DNA of 64,000 nt from Lentisphaera araneosa HTCC2155 (GCF_000170755.1 NZ_ABCK01000011.1:1-64000), one strand, 5' to 3'. Positions 15,022-27,885 are shown, numbered from the stretch's first letter. Program-made: numbers and translations. The notes: a model not told the origin generated them from the sequence alone.

Positions 15022-15294
15022 ATGGCTAAAGCTTCAATTGACCCCTCACAAGTACGCGCCTTTGCCGCCGAACTTAAAAATTTTAATCAAGAATTACAAA
15101 ATCGTATGCTCTCACTCAGGGGACGTTACAAAGCCCTTAGTGAAACTTGGCAAGACCAAGAACACGCTCGTTTTGCCGAGGAATTTGAGCGCGCCATGAA
15201 AAGCTTAAAAAAATTCGTCGAATGCTCCAACGACCAAGCTCCACTTCTCATTCGAAAAGCTGACAAAATTGATGAATACTTAAAACAAAGGTAA
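15022..15294 (+). CDS. WXG100-like (ESAT-6/EsxA-type) small helical protein
   Basis: 90 residues predicted as two long amphipathic helices joined by a turn with Trp43-Gln-Asp45 (LSETWQDQEHARFAEEF). This has the size and layout of the WXG100 family, with W-x-D in place of W-x-G. Helix 1 begins at DPSQVRAFAAELKNF, and helix 2 ends in ADKIDEYLKQR. No signal peptide. Proteins of this type are usually substrates or structural partners of EssC/EccC-like ATPases. It is the first gene of a four-gene cassette ending in such an ATPase. RBS AAGGA lies eight bases upstream, and a TATACT -10-like hexamer is at 14963-14968. The family assignment rests on pattern alone and should be tested by profile search. 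Confidence 0.7.
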   Translation: MAKASIDPSQVRAFAAELKNFNQELQNRMLSLRGRYKALSETWQDQEHARFAEEFERAMKSLKKFVECSNDQAPLLIRKADKIDEYLKQR

Positions 15295-15295
15295 T

Positions 15296-15763
15296 ATGTC
15301 TAACAAAGCCAATATCCAGTCTTTTGACGCACTCGAACAGTTTGCTCTACACCTCAAGAAATCTCGTGAGCAAATTAATCAAGCAGCGGGTGAAATGCGC
15401 AATGAGATTACACGGCGACAAAAAACTATCCATGAAGTCCTTCCTCAACAAGTCAACAAGCAAATTTTGCATTGGCAAGAAGTCATTAAAAAAACTCAAC
15501 AAAGCTCTGGCAGAAGGCCTTCATCTGAAGCTAAAGACATCATTCAGCGCGCCAAAGATAAATTGGCTGACTTAGATAAAAAAAAGCAGGTGCTGCAAAA
15601 ATGGAATAAAAAGTTACCCGCCTTACTCGACCCCCATAAAGGTCAAATCACCAAATTCCGCTCCTACACCGATCTAGAAATCCTCCGAGCAAGTGAATCA
15701 CTGATGCAAAAACTTAAAACCTTAGATGACTACACCCAAATCAAGGCAAAAAAACAACTATGA
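15296..15763 (+). CDS. Helical coiled-coil protein of the WXG100/FtsK cassette
   Basis: 155 residues, almost all alpha-helical, with no signal or membrane segment. The N-terminus (SFDALEQFALHLKKSREQIN) resembles a first helix of WXG100-like proteins; Trp60 lies in the segment NKQILHWQEV. The middle (ASEAKDIIQRAKDKLADLDKKKQVLQ) is a Lys/Glu-rich coiled coil. It starts two bases after the stop of the WXG100-like gene and overlaps the next gene by ATGA. A structural or chaperone role beside the small protein is inferred from position only. Confidence 0.6.
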   Translation: MSNKANIQSFDALEQFALHLKKSREQINQAAGEMRNEITRRQKTIHEVLPQQVNKQILHWQEVIKKTQQSSGRRPSSEAKDIIQRAKDKLADLDKKKQVLQKWNKKLPALLDPHKGQITKFRSYTDLEILRASESLMQKLKTLDDYTQIKAKKQL

Positions 15764-15975
15764 ACTTCCTCACACATCGTCAACATCTAGCTGAACTCAA
15801 CCAACTTAATCAGCAAAAATGGGTTAAACTTCGCACCCATTGGAAAGATGAAAAAGCTCTTGAGTTTGATCGCGTCTACCTCAAAAACTTTCGCCGTCAC
15901 ATAAGCTTAACCCTTGATAGCCTTGACGAACTCGAACAAATCTTTAGACACTTCAAAGAGGAATACGACCAGTGA
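15760..15975 (+). CDS. Second WXG100-like mini-protein
   Basis: 71 residues, two helices around Trp28-Lys-Asp30 (KLRTHWKDEKALEFDRVYL). The W-x-D turn and the following acidic-aromatic pattern parallel those of the 90-residue protein at 15022, which suggests a divergent paralogue and possible heterodimer partner. It overlaps both neighbours by four bases (ATGA and GTGA). No recognised product name. Real coding is supported by the overlaps and the shared motif. Confidence 0.6.
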   Translation: MNFLTHRQHLAELNQLNQQKWVKLRTHWKDEKALEFDRVYLKNFRRHISLTLDSLDELEQIFRHFKEEYDQ

Positions 15976-18900
15976 TTTTCCCCTTAACACCAGAAAAACT
16001 TAAACAACTATTAGTTGAACTCAATCGTCAACTCAACAATGCTATAATCGAAATTGCTAAGCTCAAGGATAATTATCAACAGGATTTAGATAAACGATCT
16101 CTAGTTTTCAAAAATAGAAAAGCTCATCTCAAAAAAGTTCACAAAGATGAATACACTAAAATTGAGGCCCAGTTTAGAGACCAAATTTTAGATATAAAAA
16201 GAAAACAGCAGAGCGAAGTTCATCAAATCCAAAGCGCACTTCAAAAAGAAGAAGCAATCATTCAAAAGAAATTTAATGAAATTGGCGATGTTGATAGGAA
16301 GCTAATGGCTGATGCTCTTGGAGATCACCGAGAAGTTTGTGATCAAGAAATCCTTAAAGCAGAAGAGATATTTACTGAAAGGCAAAATAATTTAAATCAA
16401 CTAAATATTTCAATTGATCTAAACACACTATTCCTAAAAAAGCATGGCCGCATAAATAGCGCCCGTGATCTTGATATTGCACTCGACGACTTGATCGACC
16501 AAGAAATTGAATTTGATTTAGAGTCAACAAAAAATGAATTGAGCTATGATGATGTATATAACAAAATCAAATCCATTTATACATCAATCAATCAATTACA
16601 AACCAATATTGAAAACAAGTTTATTTTCAAACTCTTCAAGATAATTCGTCCCTACATAATCTATGCAATTTTAATCATCCTTCATATACCTGCCTTCCTG
16701 TTTGCCTACAATTATAAGCCTGATTTCCTGCCGATTTCTTACACGGTTAACTCCTTTGTAATAAATATATTTATTATCACCACTTTACTCATTATTCGTA
16801 GCGTACTCATTGCCAAATCTATTAGCAATTTACAAAAAGATCATTCTCAAATACTCCCCCTTTTGGAATTCTCCATTGAACTTGCTGCACTCGAAAGATT
16901 GCGAGTTATTAATCGCCATAAAAACACATTCTTGCAAATACAGAATCGAGAAGGTAATAAACTAGAAGAGAAATTGAGATTGATTGAAATCGACCAACTT
17001 GTCGAAATGGATAAAGTTTCTAAAAATTATTTTGAAAAAATTCATAATGTTGAATCCATAGGAAACACCGCACTTGAACTCGTACTCCAAGAAAGACAGG
17101 AATTATGGGATCGAATTAGTGTAAAAACCGACGAACAGATCAGGCATTTAGTTGAAGCTCATGAAGTAAGCCAAGCAGCTTTTGTCGAGTCATCTGAAAA
17201 AAATATTGAACAACAATCAATACTAATAAATAAAAACTTAAATAAATCATGTAGTGATTTACAAGATAGCATCAAGGAAAATGAAAGATATAAAGAAGTA
17301 CTTTTCCCAAGTTTTGAAAAAGCTCAGGCAAGCTGGGACCCCCTAGAGGAGTTTCATAATCAAATCGCATTCTCATCAATGGATGTATCTTTACATGAAC
17401 AAATTAAATATCCTGAAAACCCAAACATCCAAGCTCAAATACCCGAATTTATCAACATCCCAAATATCCTCGAACTTCCAAGTAACGGTTCAATATTTAT
17501 AGATGCTAGCAAATCAAGAAGACCACGAGGCATAAGACTTTTACAAAAAACCCTTTTGAGGATCCTGCTAACTATCCCTCCTGGCAAAGCGCGATTCAAT
17601 TTCATTGACCCCTTATCTTTAGGTGAAAACTTTGCAGCTTTCATGCATTTGAATGACTACCAAAAAAGCCTAACCGGTGGTAAAATAAGTACTAAGGTTG
17701 GCCCCATAGAGCAAGTATTGAACGACTTAAATGACCACCTAGAAAAAATCATCCAAAAATACCTTCGCAATGAGTTTTCCAATATTTGTAAATACAATCT
17801 TGCAGCTGGAGAGATAGCTGAACCCTTCCGCTTTTTAACCATAGCAGATTTTCCTTTCAATTTTTCCGAAGATGCAGTCAAAAGACTTATCACCATAGCA
17901 CAAAATGGTGCCAGATGTGGAGTTTACCTGATTATTCATCACAATACCGAGTACCCAATACCTGGTGGTTTAAGAATTGATGAAATAAAAAATCATTGCA
18001 TATTTTTAGAACCTATAGAAGATACTTTTGAGTGGGAAAAATCCCCCTTCAATCAAAAGCAATTAACTATTGAAGAAGCGCCTTCCCCTGAACTCATGAA
18101 TGAACTCATCAAGAAAGTAGGCGCAGCCTCTACATCATCTACTTTAGTGAAGATCCCATTTTCAAAAATCCAAGAACCATCACCGTGGAAAGCCAACACA
18201 AACAATTCACTCTCAATTGCAATTGGTTTAACTGGGACTCGCCAACAAGAAATTCAATTTGGTCAAGGCACTGCACAACATTGCCTTTTGGCAGGAAAAA
18301 CAGGCTCTGGCAAATCTAATCTTCTGCATATAATTATCACCAATATGTCCATCAAATATTCTCCTAAAGAACTTCAATTTTATTTAATAGATTTCAAAAA
18401 AGGTGTGGAGTTCAAGGTATATGCCAATGAAAAACTCCCCCATGCTCGCGCCATTGCTATTGAGTCTGATCGCGAATTTGGGCTTAGTGTCCTTCGAAAA
18501 ATTGATGAAGAGCTTAAAGAAAGAGGTGACAAATTCCGTCAAATCAACGCTCAACACATTAGTCAATTTCGAGATAACTCTACCGAGTTAATGCCACGTT
18601 TATTATTGGTAATCGATGAGTTCCAAGAGTTTTTCACTGAAGATGATGCCCTTGCTAAAGACGCAATCTTATTGCTAGACAGAATCGTTCGCCAAGGTCG
18701 AGCCTTTGGTGTTCATGTATTACTTGGGTCACAAACTTTAGGTGGCACACAAACACTCCCTAAATCCACTATGGGACAAATGGGCATTCGTATTGCCTTA
18801 CAATGTAACGAGAGTGACTCTTATCTCATCTTTAATGAAAATAATAATGCTGCACGCCTACTCTCACGTCCAGGTGAAGCCATAATAAATAACCAGTCAG

Positions 18901-19790
18901 GCCTACCAGAATATAACTCACCTTTCCAAACAGCTTGGCTAAGTGAGAGAAAGCATCGCGCCGAATTAGTAAAATTACGCAATAAAGAAACGGGGCATCC
19001 ATTTATTTTTGAAGGAAACATCCCAGCACAATTAGAAAGCTCAAAAGAATATTTAGAAAGTACCAATTATGAAGAATTTTTTATTGGCGAACCCTGTGCT
19101 ATTGAACCTAGTCAAAAAATAAATTTCACTAAATCACCGAGTCAAAACGCGCTCATCCTAACAAATAATAAAGAAATGAGCCTAGGCATTTTGATGAACG
19201 CTTTCACAAAAGCTTGCAAACAAAACCATGAGTCTCAATTCTTCCTTCTCAACGGCTCTCAAGGTGACGTTCAATCACAAAGTTATTTTGATTTGCTGGA
19301 AGGAATAATAAAGGTTGTTTTGCCAGACAAAGTAGAAAAACTCATTGAAGAACTCCATAATACACTTCTTAATAGGCAAGATAATAATGAAGATTCGGCA
19401 CTTTACGTTTTTGCGGCTGACTTACAACGATTCAGAAAACTCCAGAAAAAAGAAGACTTTTCTTGGGACGAAACTGAAAAATCTAGTGCCGATAAATTAG
19501 AAGAATTAATTCAACAGGGACCTGAACACAACATTCACTTTATCATTCACTGTGACACCTTCTCCAGTTATCAGCGCATTTTGAGCAATAAGCTTCTTCA
19601 AGACTTCGACATACGCCTCCTCAGTCAAATGTCTCAAACCGACTCATTAGCTTGCATTGACAATAGCGAAGCCTCGAAACTGGAACTGCACACGGCCCTA
19701 CTTTACCAAGACCATAATGGCCTTTTAAAGAAATTCCGTCCCTATGCCCTTCCCTCCGTAGCATTTTATCAAGAGCAAATGAGCTCTTAA
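15972..19790 (+). CDS. FtsK/SpoIIIE-family membrane ATPase, EssC/EccC-like
   Basis: 1272 residues starting at a GTG that overlaps the preceding TGA. Order: coiled coil (about 1-220), two membrane helices (226-246 and 260-282), second coiled coil (285-480), a degenerate ATPase-like module (about 505-690, with IADFPFNFSEDAVKRL and GARCGVYLIIHHN but no P-loop), a canonical FtsK/SpoIIIE motor (Walker A GKTGSGKS 775-782; Walker B LLLVIDEF with Asp882-Glu883; VLLGSQTLGG sensor), and a C-terminal degenerate module (about 1020-1272). Several ATPase modules in tandem behind paired membrane helices are typical of EssC/EccC of type VII secretion; chromosome-pumping FtsK has one motor and a gamma domain, which is missing. 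Gene context with two W-x-D mini-proteins supports a secretion role. Confidence 0.82.
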   Translation: MIFPLTPEKLKQLLVELNRQLNNAIIEIAKLKDNYQQDLDKRSLVFKNRKAHLKKVHKDEYTKIEAQFRDQILDIKRKQQSEVHQIQSALQKEEAIIQKKFNEIGDVDRKLMADALGDHREVCDQEILKAEEIFTERQNNLNQLNISIDLNTLFLKKHGRINSARDLDIALDDLIDQEIEFDLESTKNELSYDDVYNKIKSIYTSINQLQTNIENKFIFKLFKIIRPYIIYAILIILHIPAFLFAYNYKPDFLPISYTVNSFVINIFIITTLLIIRSVLIAKSISNLQKDHSQILPLLEFSIELAALERLRVINRHKNTFLQIQNREGNKLEEKLRLIEIDQLVEMDKVSKNYFEKIHNVESIGNTALELVLQERQELWDRISVKTDEQIRHLVEAHEVSQAAFVESSEKNIEQQSILINKNLNKSCSDLQDSIKENERYKEVLFPSFEKAQASWDPLEEFHNQIAFSSMDVSLHEQIKYPENPNIQAQIPEFINIPNILELPSNGSIFIDASKSRRPRGIRLLQKTLLRILLTIPPGKARFNFIDPLSLGENFAAFMHLNDYQKSLTGGKISTKVGPIEQVLNDLNDHLEKIIQKYLRNEFSNICKYNLAAGEIAEPFRFLTIADFPFNFSEDAVKRLITIAQNGARCGVYLIIHHNTEYPIPGGLRIDEIKNHCIFLEPIEDTFEWEKSPFNQKQLTIEEAPSPELMNELIKKVGAASTSSTLVKIPFSKIQEPSPWKANTNNSLSIAIGLTGTRQQEIQFGQGTAQHCLLAGKTGSGKSNLLHIIITNMSIKYSPKELQFYLIDFKKGVEFKVYANEKLPHARAIAIESDREFGLSVLRKIDEELKERGDKFRQINAQHISQFRDNSTELMPRLLLVIDEFQEFFTEDDALAKDAILLLDRIVRQGRAFGVHVLLGSQTLGGTQTLPKSTMGQMGIRIALQCNESDSYLIFNENNNAARLLSRPGEAIINNQSGLPEYNSPFQTAWLSERKHRAELVKLRNKETGHPFIFEGNIPAQLESSKEYLESTNYEEFFIGEPCAIEPSQKINFTKSPSQNALILTNNKEMSLGILMNAFTKACKQNHESQFFLLNGSQGDVQSQSYFDLLEGIIKVVLPDKVEKLIEELHNTLLNRQDNNEDSALYVFAADLQRFRKLQKKEDFSWDETEKSSADKLEELIQQGPEHNIHFIIHCDTFSSYQRILSNKLLQDFDIRLLSQMSQTDSLACIDNSEASKLELHTALLYQDHNGLLKKFRPYALPSVAFYQEQMSS

Positions 19791-21810: not shown

Positions 21811-24800
21811 TTATCGCTTGATGTATGAAAGGTCTCCACCATAGACGTTGCCGAGTTTAAATTTAAGATTGGTGTAATACTCAAAGCTGTATTTGATGAG
21901 TATTGAGTTCTTTCCTTTGCGGAGGGGGATTTTTATCATATTACTTTGGTATTGATCCCGGTTGAGCACGGTATCTTCCAGTACGCTGCCGTTGTGCCAA
22001 ATGCGAAGGTTATTGAAAGTATTTCTTCTATCTTGAACTTTAATGTGCAGGTAGGCATTTGATGAAGATGTCGAAGTAAATTCTTTACGCAGGTACATGA
22101 AACCGGGGAAGTTCTTGCCATTGTCTTGCTGCGGCACGAAACTGAGTACACTTTCATTGGAAAGCTTAAAAGTGGATTTACGAAGGTTTTCCTCTGGCTT
22201 GGAGAGCAGGTCCAGGTTTGCAGATTTTTCGGTATTAACTGGCCCTAGTTGCTGCCAGTCCTGGTCAGCGAAGTTTTCCAGGGACATCGTTCTGCGAAGG
22301 TTAATTGGCACACGCGCTTTGCTCATTAAGCTTTGATAGTTCTTAAGATCTTTGCCAGCATGTTCTCCATATTCCTCGAGGATAGCTTCGAGCAAATGGG
22401 CATTAGCAGAATCATTGGCTAAAATTTCGGAGCACAGCTCTACGAGGTCATCTGCTCCCTTAAGTTGAATATACTTCTTCAACATCTCACTGGCACGCCA
22501 TCTATTAAGAGGGTTGCAGGTTAAATTCAGCAATAAGGATTTTTCATCCCAGTTATAATCAATATCCAATGACTCAAAAGCTATTTTTTGCACACGAATA
22601 CGATCACTTTTGGGGTACCAGCTTTTACTGCGTTGAGAAGCATAAAAATCAAACTGGGCCTCATGAGCATTTTTCCAGTTACCTTCTTTTAATCCTGCTT
22701 GTGCCCCCGCCTCACTATCAATTACAGGACTTAGTTTACCCTTGTGGAAGAGCTCAAATGATCCAAGTACCGCTTTAAATCTACGTGGGCTTTCGAGTTC
22801 AAGGCGATCGAGTTCTTTTAACTGCTCTCCAAAGAAACCCATGGGCAGAGCTACGCGTCCATCTGCAGCGGCAAATTGCAGGCTACCCCTAAGGTCAAGG
22901 TAAACGCTACCCCTTCCCATTAATTTTGCATGAGTTGGTAAAACATAGGCATTATTATTTTTATTGAAATCAATAACGCAGAAAGACAAGGCTCGGTCAT
23001 ACGATTTGAGACCGAGTTTATCTGCGAGTTTTTTACAGTGATTAAATGCCCTCTGTAGATCTGAATTAGTGAACTCATCGAGATTTAATGATCTAAGGTA
23101 TTCAATGAAAAGAACGGATAAAACATTGTGCGCCTGAACTGTTTTGCTGTGTCGAGTTAATAGCTCTTCCAGATAAGTAACATTAGATGCTATGCTGTGG
23201 TGATTACGGCGGGCTTTAATAAATTGTGATAAGCTTTCTCCGTCAGCGAGCAGAACCTTGCTTTCCGCATAGAGCTTATCCAGTTTTGCATAGCGTTCTT
23301 TATCCATTGCAAGGTAAGATCTAGTACCACAGGTATTTTCACGAGAGGAAGTATTGGGCTGATACACTGATCCAAAGCGCATGGAACCGACTTTTTCACC
23401 CTGATCAAGAAGTGAGAGCTCAAAACTTAAAAAGCCATCAAAGTGATTGGCCATTAAATCGGGCTTATCAATTTTTATTTCCAGATACTCATAGCCATCT
23501 GCTGAAAAGTGATGTTTAAATGGTTCTTTTAGATTATCTCCTACAAGATGACCAACATTGCTGCCCTTTTCCGTAAATTCCGCATAAAAAGCATCGTGAA
23601 AGCGGTGGCTATTGAGCGATACGCCAAAGTGATTAAGCAGTTTTGCATGATTTTTAAATCTCACCTGTAATTGAAGCTCTTTTGAGTTATCACTCAAACG
23701 GTATTCAAGTTCAGGTATGGGATAATTATTTTTCCCATACCAGAATTTAGGGTTTGCTTTTTGCCAAAATAAAGAATCAATTTTCTTGGGGTTATAAGCA
23801 ATTGTTTCAGAAGGTAAATTTAGAGAGTTGTAGAGGTAGCTGTAACCCTTGTGAACTTTTATTAAACTACGATCCGTCAAAATTGTAGCCTCTGTACTTG
23901 GGCCGTCAATCATCATACGCGAGATGAGCTTGCTTGTTTTTAAATCATAGACATTTCTCATTTTATTACTGACAACAACAAGTTGATCATCTACTTCTCG
24001 GCACCAACCTTTAAACTGTTTTCCTTTAGTGAGATTGTCATCATAAACTTTCATAAACTCAGAGAAACGTTCCAGTTTAATTAAGCCATTATTAGATGCG
24101 TAGATATAATCACTGCCCTGACCATGGACAAAACCTTTGTTCCCCAGCGCATTAAATTTATGCTTTTTATATTTACCATCAGATAGATCCAGGAGATCAC
24201 CATAATTCGTTGCAGCGTACCTTTCTGATAAACGCCAGGATCTATGCGGCGTGTGGCCCATGCGCATCTCATGCATTTTTAGTTTCCTGAAATCAAAGAT
24301 ATTAAGAGCGTGATGAGTTAACCAGCCTTGAGTATAGGAATTACTTTGCAGCTGGTCCCCCATGTGGTAGCGTTTATCAAGGATTTTAATTTCACTGAGT
24401 TTGTCCGTGATCTGATAGACTTTATTTTTAGCTGTATGTGCGTGGGGGAAACTAAGCAAGCGGTCTTCCTTGATGATAAAATCACGAGCACTTAGAAAAA
24501 ATTCTTTTGTTTGTTTCTTTGTCTTTAAATCGAACTGCTTAAGACTTCCATCTGAACAAAGAATATAAAGATGATTTTTGTTCCAGCGAGCTGCATAAAT
24601 AACTTCCCCACTTATGGGCTTATAAAGAAACTCAGACTTAAGGTTATATGTATTAAAAACACTGACAGAACCGGAGCTGTAGGCAAGGATTTTTTTCTCT
24701 TTGAGCATGAAGTTCGGAAAGCGTTTTTGCCAAACTAATTGAGATGGTGAGTACTGCCCATTAACAATTGTAGATTCTTTAATGAGCGCATAATCATTCA

Positions 24801-27800
24801 AGTACTGAATGATGCTGTAGGCTGGGTTATCAAGGGAATGAGCAATCGGTCGTTCCTTAAAATAAATGCTATTAAATGAAAAGGAAATTAGGCCATCATT
24901 AGAAAAATATTTAAGGTCAATTTCATCAGCCTTTCCCAAAGTGAGATTGATTTCTTGAGCGTTGTCATCGAGTGTCGAGGGTAGCTGACCATCGGCTCTG
25001 AGTAGAAAAGCGTTACCCTCTCCGTAAACGAGGAAATTATCATTAGATTTAGCAATTCGTTCGGGGCTGATATTAAGGAGTTTACGACCAAGTAATTCTT
25101 TCTTTTTAAGATCGAAAGAAACAATTCCACGTTTCACAGGTAGATAGACAACATTTTTATTAAGCGTCCCCTCACCTTGGAGAGAAAGGTTGCCTAAATG
25201 TTTTTGCCAAATGACACGGCCGCTAGTAATTGAAAGTGACTTGAGCATGTGCTGATTTCGACTATTGAGATGAGAAAAAACAATTTTACTCTCGGATCTG
25301 GAGTGAATATATGTTGGTAGATCCAAGGAGTTTTTCCATAGAATTTCTCCCGTTGCTGAATCCAGTGCATACCAGCTCATAGATGCATTATCAAAATGAA
25401 TTAATTTGCCATCAATAACAGTCAAATAAGGAGAGGCGGTTCTTGCAGGATTAGTCCAATCAAATGAATCACCTTCATGATATTTTCTCATTTTTTGTGG
25501 GCAAGAGCGAACCCATTCAATACGTTTTTCAAAGGCATTAACCTTCGCCACAAGACCAGATCCCGAGTATAAATAAATAGCTTCGCGGTCTTCGCAAAAA
25601 TTATCGAATTGAAGAAGACTTTTAAAAATATCGTAATGACCTTCCTGCTTAAAGGGGTCGCGTATTTTGGCTAGGGATTGAACAGATTCAAGTTCTCCAG
25701 ACTCCAGATCAATAAACGCGATGGCAAAGACTGGAGCAGCCTGACGATCGCGCTCAACTAAAAGAATAATATTGCTGTCCATCTTGGAAAAAGGTATGCT
25801 ACAGGGCTCCCACTTACTAAAGGATTTCAGGTAGCTGCTATCCCACTGTATTTCTCCTTTGAGATTTCTTTTTTGAAGAGTGAAGGTCTTTTGTGAACTA
25901 TTATAATTCAGATTGTAGTAATGCTTATTAATTACGGCCCCCTTGTACGAACGGGGGGAATTTTGAATACGATCATCAGCCGGCATGAAGGAATAATTAT
26001 TCCACAAAATTTTTCCTTGTGAATCGGAAACTTCTGTTCCAATTGGACTGGAAGAAAACCATTGTTGATTAGCTTTAACTAATTTTCTTTGCGACCTAGG
26101 AATAAAATATTGATCCCAGTCAAACTCCGATGTACGTCCATCCACCGTGCTTTTTAAATCTGAGGCAAGAGGAATTTTCACAAGAAGACTGCCCGGACCT
26201 TTGGATGCAGTTTCCTTGGAACGACATTGATCCGCTAGGGCTTTTAATTTAATAGTTTGACCTTTGAACTGAACTGAAGCTTCCAATAATTCTTGTGGTA
26301 GTTTCTGACGCAGTTCATTTGCTACTTCCAATTCCTTTTCGATAATTAGCAGGTACGCGGCTGCCTCTTTTGCGAAGTTCGCATTATTTAATAAACGATC
26401 GGCATAGGCTTTTGCATTGGATAAATCGCCACGATTAAAGTACTCCTGCATAAGCATTGCTTCAGCCTTGGGGAATGATGCCAAACCGGAAGTCTCCCTC
26501 AAATAATCTTGGAGTTTGTCTATATCAAAAGTCTCGATGGCTTTAGCCACGCGACTGGAGTAACGCTCTTTTAAATAAGCAGAAAACTGATCCGCAAAAT
26601 CCGGTATTGAACTTAATTTATGCTGAAAGTAAGTCTTTAGTGAAACAAGCTGATAATCACGACTGAATAACTTGTCCTGATTTGAACGTATAATTTTATA
26701 GACTTGGGCTAAGGTATCGCGATCAGCTTTTCTCTCAAAAAGTCGATCGAGGTCATTGACAAAAACCTCGACTTCGGGATCAGCAGTAAAGCGTGGTCTA
26801 ATACCCGACTCATCCTGCGATTCTAGTAAGGCGTACTCGATATTCTTCTGTGTAGACTTGTTTTTCTGATCGGCTACCTTCTTAAAAAGTAAAAACATTT
26901 CATGGGCGGATTTTGCATCGCCCTGCATGAGAATAAATTCTGCAATCGCATAGAGATTGTTCCCCCAACTATAACCGCTTTTGGCCTTATACTTTTTTGC
27001 ATAGAGTTCAAAAAACTGCACGATTTCTTTACCACGTCCTTCAATCGCGAGAGTGTCGAAATAACTCTTGATATGAGGGTGATTTATGGCGATCATCAAG
27101 TCTACAATTTTTTCGGTGTCAATACTTCCCATAACTTTGGACATCACACGGGGGTGAATTCCCATATGAAAGAAATGTCTTATGCGTCCCTGAGGAAGCT
27201 GCTGGTAGTTTAAATTGACTACTTGTCGTATGCCGTGAGCCTGAGCTTCAAATAAATCGGATGAGCGCAGTGCCAGCTGAAAGTTAAGCCACTCTTCCAT
27301 ATCCTGCTGTTTAATCTTATCAAATTTGCTGAGGTATTTATTAAAGGCCTCCTTAAGTTTTTCACTGTAAGGAACGGCCCTTAAGTGTGGGATATGCTGA
27401 TCTTTGGTCATGGAGATAAATACGAGATCATTGCGACCCTTTTTAAACGAGAGAGTCTGAAAGGGTGATTCTCGATGGTAGAGTAAACCACTGTCGTGCT
27501 GAGCCAAAAGCTTGCCGTTTAAGTAGGTTTTAAATAGCTTACCGTATTGAATTTTAGCAAGGACTTTCATATCTGTTGGAAGCATGGCACTGTAGCGATA
27601 TACCGCAAATGCTCTCTTTGGCTGGTGTATCCCTTTTTTGAAGTCAATAGACTGGCTCGGGGTTTTAACACCTTTATCCTGTACAAACCTTATGCTACCG
27701 ACTGGTGCATTAAAAGGACAAGCAGCGGCACTGTTTTTCTCCAGCGACTGCATCAGCCCTTGCTCGAGTTTCTTATCGTGGGCAAAATCGATAATCAACT

Positions 27801-27885
27801 CAGGTTTAAGCTCCGCAATATTGGCTTTCCAATCAGCCGAAAAAACCGTGCAGCTACATAAAAGAATTAAGTGAAATATCTTCAT
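21811..27885 (-). CDS. Giant secreted protein with PQQ-like beta-propeller
   Basis: 2024 residues. A signal peptide (MKIFHLILLCSCTVFSA) is followed by an N-terminal part with a strand-rich module and TPR-like helices (about 130-560). A long central region (about 600-1400) has PQQ/quinoprotein-like propeller strands such as WYALDSATGEILWKNSL, LSITSGRVIWQKHLGNL and QFDLKTKKQTKEF. The C-terminal third has a beta-sandwich and helices, closing with LRIWHNGSVLEDTVLNRDQ, a carbohydrate-binding-like fold. Its ATG overlaps the preceding stop (TAATG). It is the last gene of the moxR operon and probably a periplasmic or surface scaffold. No catalytic motif was recognised. Confidence 0.65.
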   Translation of the reverse strand: MKIFHLILLCSCTVFSADWKANIAELKPELIIDFAHDKKLEQGLMQSLEKNSAAACPFNAPVGSIRFVQDKGVKTPSQSIDFKKGIHQPKRAFAVYRYSAMLPTDMKVLAKIQYGKLFKTYLNGKLLAQHDSGLLYHRESPFQTLSFKKGRNDLVFISMTKDQHIPHLRAVPYSEKLKEAFNKYLSKFDKIKQQDMEEWLNFQLALRSSDLFEAQAHGIRQVVNLNYQQLPQGRIRHFFHMGIHPRVMSKVMGSIDTEKIVDLMIAINHPHIKSYFDTLAIEGRGKEIVQFFELYAKKYKAKSGYSWGNNLYAIAEFILMQGDAKSAHEMFLLFKKVADQKNKSTQKNIEYALLESQDESGIRPRFTADPEVEVFVNDLDRLFERKADRDTLAQVYKIIRSNQDKLFSRDYQLVSLKTYFQHKLSSIPDFADQFSAYLKERYSSRVAKAIETFDIDKLQDYLRETSGLASFPKAEAMLMQEYFNRGDLSNAKAYADRLLNNANFAKEAAAYLLIIEKELEVANELRQKLPQELLEASVQFKGQTIKLKALADQCRSKETASKGPGSLLVKIPLASDLKSTVDGRTSEFDWDQYFIPRSQRKLVKANQQWFSSSPIGTEVSDSQGKILWNNYSFMPADDRIQNSPRSYKGAVINKHYYNLNYNSSQKTFTLQKRNLKGEIQWDSSYLKSFSKWEPCSIPFSKMDSNIILLVERDRQAAPVFAIAFIDLESGELESVQSLAKIRDPFKQEGHYDIFKSLLQFDNFCEDREAIYLYSGSGLVAKVNAFEKRIEWVRSCPQKMRKYHEGDSFDWTNPARTASPYLTVIDGKLIHFDNASMSWYALDSATGEILWKNSLDLPTYIHSRSESKIVFSHLNSRNQHMLKSLSITSGRVIWQKHLGNLSLQGEGTLNKNVVYLPVKRGIVSFDLKKKELLGRKLLNISPERIAKSNDNFLVYGEGNAFLLRADGQLPSTLDDNAQEINLTLGKADEIDLKYFSNDGLISFSFNSIYFKERPIAHSLDNPAYSIIQYLNDYALIKESTIVNGQYSPSQLVWQKRFPNFMLKEKKILAYSSGSVSVFNTYNLKSEFLYKPISGEVIYAARWNKNHLYILCSDGSLKQFDLKTKKQTKEFFLSARDFIIKEDRLLSFPHAHTAKNKVYQITDKLSEIKILDKRYHMGDQLQSNSYTQGWLTHHALNIFDFRKLKMHEMRMGHTPHRSWRLSERYAATNYGDLLDLSDGKYKKHKFNALGNKGFVHGQGSDYIYASNNGLIKLERFSEFMKVYDDNLTKGKQFKGWCREVDDQLVVVSNKMRNVYDLKTSKLISRMMIDGPSTEATILTDRSLIKVHKGYSYLYNSLNLPSETIAYNPKKIDSLFWQKANPKFWYGKNNYPIPELEYRLSDNSKELQLQVRFKNHAKLLNHFGVSLNSHRFHDAFYAEFTEKGSNVGHLVGDNLKEPFKHHFSADGYEYLEIKIDKPDLMANHFDGFLSFELSLLDQGEKVGSMRFGSVYQPNTSSRENTCGTRSYLAMDKERYAKLDKLYAESKVLLADGESLSQFIKARRNHHSIASNVTYLEELLTRHSKTVQAHNVLSVLFIEYLRSLNLDEFTNSDLQRAFNHCKKLADKLGLKSYDRALSFCVIDFNKNNNAYVLPTHAKLMGRGSVYLDLRGSLQFAAADGRVALPMGFFGEQLKELDRLELESPRRFKAVLGSFELFHKGKLSPVIDSEAGAQAGLKEGNWKNAHEAQFDFYASQRSKSWYPKSDRIRVQKIAFESLDIDYNWDEKSLLLNLTCNPLNRWRASEMLKKYIQLKGADDLVELCSEILANDSANAHLLEAILEEYGEHAGKDLKNYQSLMSKARVPINLRRTMSLENFADQDWQQLGPVNTEKSANLDLLSKPEENLRKSTFKLSNESVLSFVPQQDNGKNFPGFMYLRKEFTSTSSSNAYLHIKVQDRRNTFNNLRIWHNGSVLEDTVLNRDQYQSNMIKIPLRKGKNSILIKYSFEYYTNLKFKLGNVYGGDLSYIKR

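What the first reader, a model, noticed from the sequence alone, without database searches (positions are those of the whole stretch)
15022..19790. Minimal type VII-like WXG100/FtsK-SpoIIIE cassette in a Gram-negative bacterium
Four genes overlap or nearly touch: a 90-residue W-x-D helical-hairpin protein, a 155-residue coiled-coil protein, a 71-residue second W-x-D protein and a 1272-residue EssC/EccC-like ATPase with two membrane helices and three ATPase-like modules, of which only the middle has a P-loop. Type VII secretion is best known in monoderms; here SecDF, LetAB and a GH16 enzyme show a two-membrane cell. No other ESX components (EccB, EccD, EsaA, YukD) are linked, so the machine would be minimal. 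Whether it exports protein, exports DNA or builds something at the envelope is unknown.
Basis: partly seen in the sequence, partly recalled or inferred. Interest (0 to 1): 0.82.

Follow-up and report, generated by a model that had tools for sequence, protein, structure and literature searches.

The report
Minimal membrane WXG100/EssC-like cassette in PVC
Many Gram-negative planctomycetes, verrucomicrobia and lentisphaerae keep the same four-gene set, three small helical proteins and a membrane motor related to the type VII secretion motor, which looks like a stripped-down protein exporter whose job has never been tested.

Summary
A (90 aa) is a true WXG100 protein. B (71 aa) is a short, divergent WXG100-like protein. 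C (155 aa) is a long helical hairpin. [quoted passage not shown] The order A-C-B-T recurs in 70 of 86 related loci, all PVC apart from mislabelled or unassigned bins, with no other conserved neighbour. It is usually single-copy, found in 29% of sampled Planctomycetota and 7% of Verrucomicrobiota genomes, and its tree follows the phyla, so it is an inherited unit and not a recent arrival.
The kind is not new. A 2012 table footnote records solo WXG proteins with a three-module, middle-active ATPase in these phyla; H. pylori HP0062/HP0066 and the CoCoNuT-linked loci are relatives. What is new is the fixed four-gene composition, vertical inheritance across the PVC phyla, and the membrane helix pair, which the TerY/CoCoNuT-type relatives lack. 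In relatives the C position holds nuclease-like proteins, so C is most likely the cargo. Best reading: a minimal T7SS-like export module. Export itself is untested.

The parts
15022..15294 (+). Gene A: WXG100 protein, 90 aa, W43-x-D45 turn
   Evidence: PF06013 39.7 bits, above cut-off; W43 and D45 invariant in 58 orthologues; PDB profile hits HP0062 2e-13, EsxB 3e-9, EsxA 9e-6
15148..15156 (+). W-Q-D codons of gene A (the WXG-equivalent turn)
   Evidence: alignment A1, invariant W43/D45
15296..15763 (+). Gene C: 155-aa elongated two-helix hairpin (helices 10-71 and 77-154), proposed cargo/partner
   Evidence: AlphaFold2 pLDDT 92; orthologues in all complete cassettes
15760..15975 (+). Gene B: 71-aa short WXG100-like protein, W28-x-D30
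   Evidence: W21, W28, D30 invariant in 50 orthologues; profile-profile match to A, prob 72%, E 3.5e-5, W and D aligned; best PDB hit S. aureus EsxA but only E 0.1
15841..15849 (+). W-K-D codons of gene B
   Evidence: alignment A2
15972..19790 (+). Gene T: 1272-aa EssC/EccC-type membrane ATPase
   Evidence: PF01580 93.5 bits; NCBIfam EccCa 107, EssC 106 bits; Foldseek best match EccC 1.5e-31 over the whole cytoplasmic part
16653..16811 (+). T: pair of transmembrane helices (about residues 228-246 and 262-280) with a short loop
   Evidence: hydropathy; exactly two such helices in 75 of 79 PVC orthologues
17448..18143 (+). T: module 1, ATPase-like, no Walker A (about residues 493-724)
   Evidence: model m09f047fbf6fb, pLDDT 86; no GxxxxGK[ST] there
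18144..18995 (+). T: module 2, active ATPase (about residues 725-1008)
   Evidence: PF01580 match 733-950; Walker A 775-782 at 18294-18317, Walker B D882/E883 at 18615-18620, invariant in 56 orthologues
18999..19751 (+). T: module 3, degenerate, EssC-D3-like (about residues 1010-1260)
   Evidence: VIA-align match to EssC D3 (6tv1) Z 19.5, rmsd 3.3, 219 aligned

Best explanation
It is a self-contained, minimal type-VII-like export module. A and B, WXG100-type hairpins without signal peptides, bind or escort the long hairpin protein C. The complex docks on T, a hexamer-forming inner-membrane motor (hexamer inferred from EccC/FtsK relatives) whose middle module burns ATP while modules 1 and 3 are regulatory or cargo-binding, and T threads C, with or without A/B, through the membrane at its two-helix ring. 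Shown here: the gene set, its conservation, the folds, the single active site and the membrane helices. Inferred: that A, B and C form a complex, that C is cargo, the direction of transport, and how anything crosses the outer membrane.
For: A is WXG100 and its profile hits HP0062, EsxB and EsxA. B resembles A by profile. T's profile scores 142 bits to EccC against 45 to FtsK, and the fold of the cytoplasmic part is closest to EccC, colinear with its modules. Two TM helices in 75 of 79 orthologues. The four genes are translationally coupled and kept together in 70 of 86 loci, with changing neighbours. In relatives the C position carries effector-like proteins: an HNH/colicin-DNase protein (PF14414, PF12639) followed by SMI1/KNR4 in a Helicobacter plasmid; a coiled coil plus a conserved D...ExK domain in Caballeronia, Lentisphaera marina and others; and a true homologue of the C hairpin fused to a ParB-like domain on a Rhodococcus plasmid (hhalign prob 82%, score 43.7 against 24.9 for the best control; shared C-terminal domain with L121, E 4e-8).
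Against: No experiment known to me shows secretion by any member of this clade. The PVC C proteins carry no toxin domain; only a Phycisphaerae subset has an extra Imm33-like domain. No outer-membrane partner or other ESX subunit is linked. Apart from the Rhodococcus case, homology between C and the nuclease N-termini cannot be told from generic coiled coil. Three genomes hold A-C-B and T apart. A has no YxxxD/E tail.
Confidence: 0.6

Rival explanations
1. A soluble-defence relative that has become membrane-bound: the cassette belongs to the TerY-P/CoCoNuT-linked WXG100/FtsK family and works inside the cell in stress or phage response, with C as a scaffold and T remodelling protein or nucleic-acid complexes instead of exporting.
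For: The nearest outside relatives sit in TerY-P islands with kinase, phosphatase, VWA and CARF genes, and PMC11090510 describes such loci beside CoCoNuT type IV restriction systems; those ATPases have no TM helices. The tree places them in the same three-module clade. In one family member A-C-B is followed by a Ser/Thr kinase.
Against: PVC cassettes have no conserved kinase, VWA, nuclease or restriction neighbour, T has a conserved TM pair, and PADLOC finds only general FtsK/HerA similarity.
Confidence: 0.2
2. An envelope-building or structural device: T places the hairpins A, B and C at or across the inner membrane as an architectural or signalling complex, not as released cargo.
For: Vertical, single-copy inheritance across the PVC phyla, no toxin domain, and acidic Pro/Ser/Thr-rich or Imm33-like tails on C fit a housekeeping-like role better than warfare.
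Against: Only 7-29% of genomes keep it, so it is dispensable; there is no linked envelope gene.
Confidence: 0.12
3. A DNA translocase of the FtsK/HerA kind.
For: The P-loop module alone superposes best on FtsK motor domains (VIA Z 32.2, rmsd 2.3 over 274 residues) and scores about equally to EssC D1 and FtsK in a P-loop HMM.
Against: Whole-T profile 142 bits to EccC against 45 to FtsK; no FtsK gamma domain in the Pfam table; three modules; a WXG100 partner in every complete cassette; the genome has a separate FtsK-like 828-aa frame.
Confidence: 0.05

Closest known systems
Solo-WXG / three-module 'YueA-like' ATPase systems (PMC3482391, Table 1 footnote 6)
   Same: WXG100 protein plus an ATPase with three FtsK/HerA modules of which only the middle is active; planctomycetes and verrucomicrobia named
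   Different: called mobile there; here usually single-copy, phylum-congruent and inherited; C, B, the fixed order and the TM pair are not described in the passages read
Helicobacter pylori HP0062-HP0066 locus (PMC4978471, PMC3397514)
   Same: WXG100 with a W-x-D turn and a linked FtsK/SpoIIIE ATPase in a diderm; HP0062 is A's best PDB relative
   Different: a related Helicobacter plasmid locus has an HNH nuclease and SMI1 protein where C lies
WXG100/EssC-like operons next to CoCoNuT and TerY-P loci (PMC11090510)
   Same: three-module, middle-active ATPase with N-terminal coiled coil, two WXG100-type proteins, coiled-coil protein
   Different: coiled coil fused to a D-ExK nuclease, an immunity-like protein, defence neighbours, and no TM helices
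Canonical T7SSa/T7SSb (ESX, Ess/Yuk) and T7SSc-j (PMC11217815)
   Same: WXG100 plus EccC/EssC-type membrane ATPase
   Different: no YukD or EssB found; three ATPase modules, not four; equivalog cut-offs missed; separate clade
LXG toxin with Lap partners (T7SSb)
   Same: long helical hairpin protein encoded with two small WXG-like hairpins (analogy from general knowledge)
   Different: no sequence match or significant fold match

Membership tests
WXG100 superfamily (gene A) | match to PF06013 above gathering score | tested here: met
   39.7 bits against 27.3
WXG100 superfamily (gene A) | W-x-G in the hairpin turn | tested here: not met
   W-x-D in all 58 orthologues; HP0062, treated as ESAT-6-like, also has WRD (PMC3397514). 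So A is filed by profile and not by the literal motif
WXG100 superfamily (gene B) | match to PF06013 | tested here: inconclusive
   2 of 50 members, best E 0.008; profile match to A prob 72%
WXG100 superfamily | secreted dimer | not testable with these tools
   needs experiment
Canonical T7SS (a/b) | EccC/EssC ATPase at equivalog score | tested here: not met
   107 of 509 and 106 of 778 bits
Canonical T7SS (a/b) | WXG100 gene next to the ATPase | tested here: met
Canonical T7SS (a/b) | YukD/EsaB and EssB (T7SSb) | tested here: not met
   absent from genome, B. subtilis control positive
Canonical T7SS (a/b) | EccB (T7SSa) | tested here: inconclusive
   no hit, but no control rang
Canonical T7SS (a/b) | EccD, EccE, MycP, EsaA, EssA | not tested
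   none seen in the locus; not searched genome-wide
Solo-WXG three-module system (PMC3482391) | three FtsK/HerA-type modules, only the middle with Walker A | tested here: met
Solo-WXG three-module system (PMC3482391) | mobile element behaviour | tested here: not met
   phylum changes on tree 3, the minimum; 0 of 200 shuffles as low; usually one copy per genome
FtsK DNA translocase | FtsK equivalog score, gamma domain | tested here: not met
   19 of 1566 bits; no gamma domain in the Pfam table
CoCoNuT/TerY-P WXG100-EssC operon | coiled-coil nuclease fusion, VWA/kinase/phosphatase neighbours, no TM in ATPase | tested here: not met

The most novel reading that the evidence does not exclude
An ancestral PVC-wide, toxin-free, four-protein export or envelope machine built on the T7SS core (motor, two WXG-like hairpins and one long hairpin), inherited since before the phyla split, that moves C across the inner membrane of a diderm cell.
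Probability: 0.35. Interest if true: 0.75.

Novelty: new variant of a known kind. Interest (0 to 1): 0.52.

Why it matters
Canonical T7SS need several extra membrane subunits whose roles are debated. A conserved natural system with only a motor, two WXG-like proteins and a hairpin would be the simplest test of what the core can do, in diderm phyla where T7SS is not expected. Cultured hosts are named here (Lentisphaera marina, Verrucomicrobium sp. BvORR034/BvORR106), so deletion and secretome tests are possible.

Tried and rejected
Second WXG100-like hit in the genome (C24, 201-aa frame next to a transposase): below cut-off, no cassette, not pursued. Fold search with the C model: no match below E 0.2, only generic long helical hairpins, with an LXG complex and YscO among insignificant rows. 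hhalign of C against the D-ExK fusions: prob 6.8%, not distinguishable from coiled-coil controls. Conserved neighbours: all-against-all clustering of genes around the cassette found nothing beyond the four genes. PADLOC: only SspH/HerA-type P-loop similarity. EccB search uninformative. Promoter and terminator scan: no more sites than shuffles. Literature for a PVC cassette of four genes: none found in the held library. Phage records: distant ATPase relatives only. The 2014 WXG100 superfamily paper PMC3935865 mentions none of these phyla.

Full report
What is there. Window 15022-19790 (+) holds four coupled genes, here called A, C, B and T. The genome is a 6.0-Mb, 81-contig assembly; its nearest named relative in the searches is Lentisphaera marina (T 68% identical). 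A is 90 aa and matches Pfam WXG100 above its cut-off. A profile of 58 orthologues finds, among solved structures, first H. pylori HP0062 (E 2e-13), then B. anthracis EsxB and S. aureus EsxA. The turn is W-x-D in every orthologue, as in HP0062 (PMC3397514). B is 71 aa, poorly conserved except W21, W28, D30 and a few other positions. It is related to A by profile comparison (prob 72%, W and D aligned). Its PDB hits are individually insignificant but are led by S. aureus EsxA at E 0.1 and include two streptococcal WXG100-size proteins that A also hits. I take B as WXG100-like with moderate confidence. C is modelled with high confidence as one long two-helix hairpin.

T. The 1272-residue protein has an N-terminal coiled-coil-like part, two hydrophobic helices, a second helical part and three ATPase-like modules. 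Only module 2 has Walker A and B, and their key residues are invariant. The AlphaFold2 model of residues 440-1272 has pLDDT 86. Foldseek's best matches are EccC and EssC cytoplasmic domains (1.5e-31), well above FtsK (6e-15). Colinear superposition puts modules 2-3 on EssC/EccC D2-D3, whereas sequence profiles match module 2 slightly better to EccC D1, so the exact module correspondence is open. The P-loop module alone is about equally distant from EssC D1 and FtsK and superposes best on FtsK. A tree of this module gives a separate clade of three-module ATPases beside EssC/EccC and FtsK (long branches, midpoint root).

Distribution. A scan of 84,980 species genomes returned 80 best loci, all Planctomycetota, Verrucomicrobiota or Lentisphaerota except one bin labelled Proteobacteria, which falls inside Verrucomicrobiota, and two unnamed bins. 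Adding own-family loci, 70 of 86 hold all four genes in the order A-C-B-T. Most of the rest are cut by contig or locus ends. In three genomes A-C-B lies apart from T but both are present. A-like genes occur in 26 of 384 Verrucomicrobiota and 116 of 394 Planctomycetota genomes, one copy in nearly all. The T tree needs only 3 phylum changes, the minimum possible (0 of 200 shuffles). Neighbours differ everywhere outside close relatives. So the unit looks old, inherited and often lost, and not like a recent mobile arrival. The scan used patterns taken from this T, so distant members outside PVC would be missed.

Relatives and what they say about function. Plasmid searches gave three-module relatives in Caballeronia, Rhodococcus, Deinococcus and Helicobacter. 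Caballeronia and a second locus of L. marina carry A, a coiled coil with a conserved D...ExK domain, a small protein, a B-position protein and T inside TerY-P islands. The Helicobacter plasmid has A, an HNH/colicin-DNase protein, SMI1/KNR4 (a family that often acts as immunity protein, established knowledge), a 77-aa protein and T. A Rhodococcus plasmid encodes a homologue of the C hairpin (hhalign prob 82%, score 43.7 against 24.9 for the best of the controls) fused to a domain that by eye is ParB-like and is shared with a Lentisphaeria-class locus. So the position, and in one case the domain, that C occupies is used elsewhere to carry enzyme-like ends. This is the main argument that C is cargo. 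In PVC cassettes C ends at the hairpin, in an acidic or Pro/Ser/Thr-rich tail, or, in a Phycisphaerae subset, in an Imm33-like domain.

What separates the PVC cassette from those relatives. T has exactly two hydrophobic helices with a short loop in 75 of 79 full-length PVC sequences, and none in the six TerY-P/CoCoNuT-type and Deinococcus sequences; PMC11090510 reports the same absence for the CoCoNuT-linked forms. There is no nuclease, immunity, VWA, kinase or restriction gene in common. The one kinase seen next to A-C-B is a single case.

Prior art. PMC3482391 (2012), Table 1 footnote 6, records solo WXG domains with a YueA-like ATPase of three HerA/FtsK domains, only the middle active, in planctomycetes, verrucomicrobia and others, and calls them mobile. 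PMC4978471 calls HP0062/HP0066-type pairs a minimal type VII set. PMC11090510 describes the CoCoNuT-linked form with two WXG100-type proteins. PMC11217815 lists T7SSc-j for Gram-positives only. The idea of a first type VII-like cassette in a Gram-negative therefore falls. The fixed four-gene, membrane-anchored, vertically inherited PVC form was not found described in the papers searched.

Verdict. Real, conserved, and most likely a minimal T7SS-like export module; a new variant of a known, experimentally untested kind.

Noticed in passing
L117 (Lentisphaera marina genome G002 C1:1716000-1732000): A second, soluble-type WXG100/three-module ATPase locus in a TerY-P island with a coiled-coil plus D-ExK domain protein, as in the Caballeronia plasmid pSBC2-5.
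   Followed up: partly
L118:2834-4105 and L119:3554-4939: In two Verrucomicrobiota genomes the WXG100 domain lies at the C-terminal end of an open frame of 423-461 aa with an unrelated N-terminal part; fusion or in-frame start not resolved.
   Followed up: no
L124:697-2070 (-) and L125: In genome G003 (same family) A-C-B is followed by a Ser/Thr kinase gene with a C-terminal hydrophobic stretch, and T lies on another contig.
   Followed up: partly
L037, L039, L042, L049, L052, L057, L064, L084, L088: Phycisphaerae-type C proteins carry an extra C-terminal domain; L049 matches Imm33-like PF24719 at 8e-8, an immunity-type domain fused to a putative cargo.
   Followed up: partly
G000:C24:54834-55019 (L002:1456-1959): Weak sub-cut-off WXG100 match in a 167-aa coiled protein beside a split transposase-like gene.
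   Followed up: partly
L121 (G259 C428): Rearranged relative in order T-A-A'-C'-B' with C' ending in a ParB-like domain.
   Followed up: partly
L067: MAG labelled Proteobacteria (WB5_2B_004) whose ATPase falls inside Verrucomicrobiota; probably a mislabelled bin.
   Followed up: partly
window 21811-27885 (-): 2024-aa protein with a signal-peptide-like start and repeat/propeller-like look, not examined.
   Followed up: no
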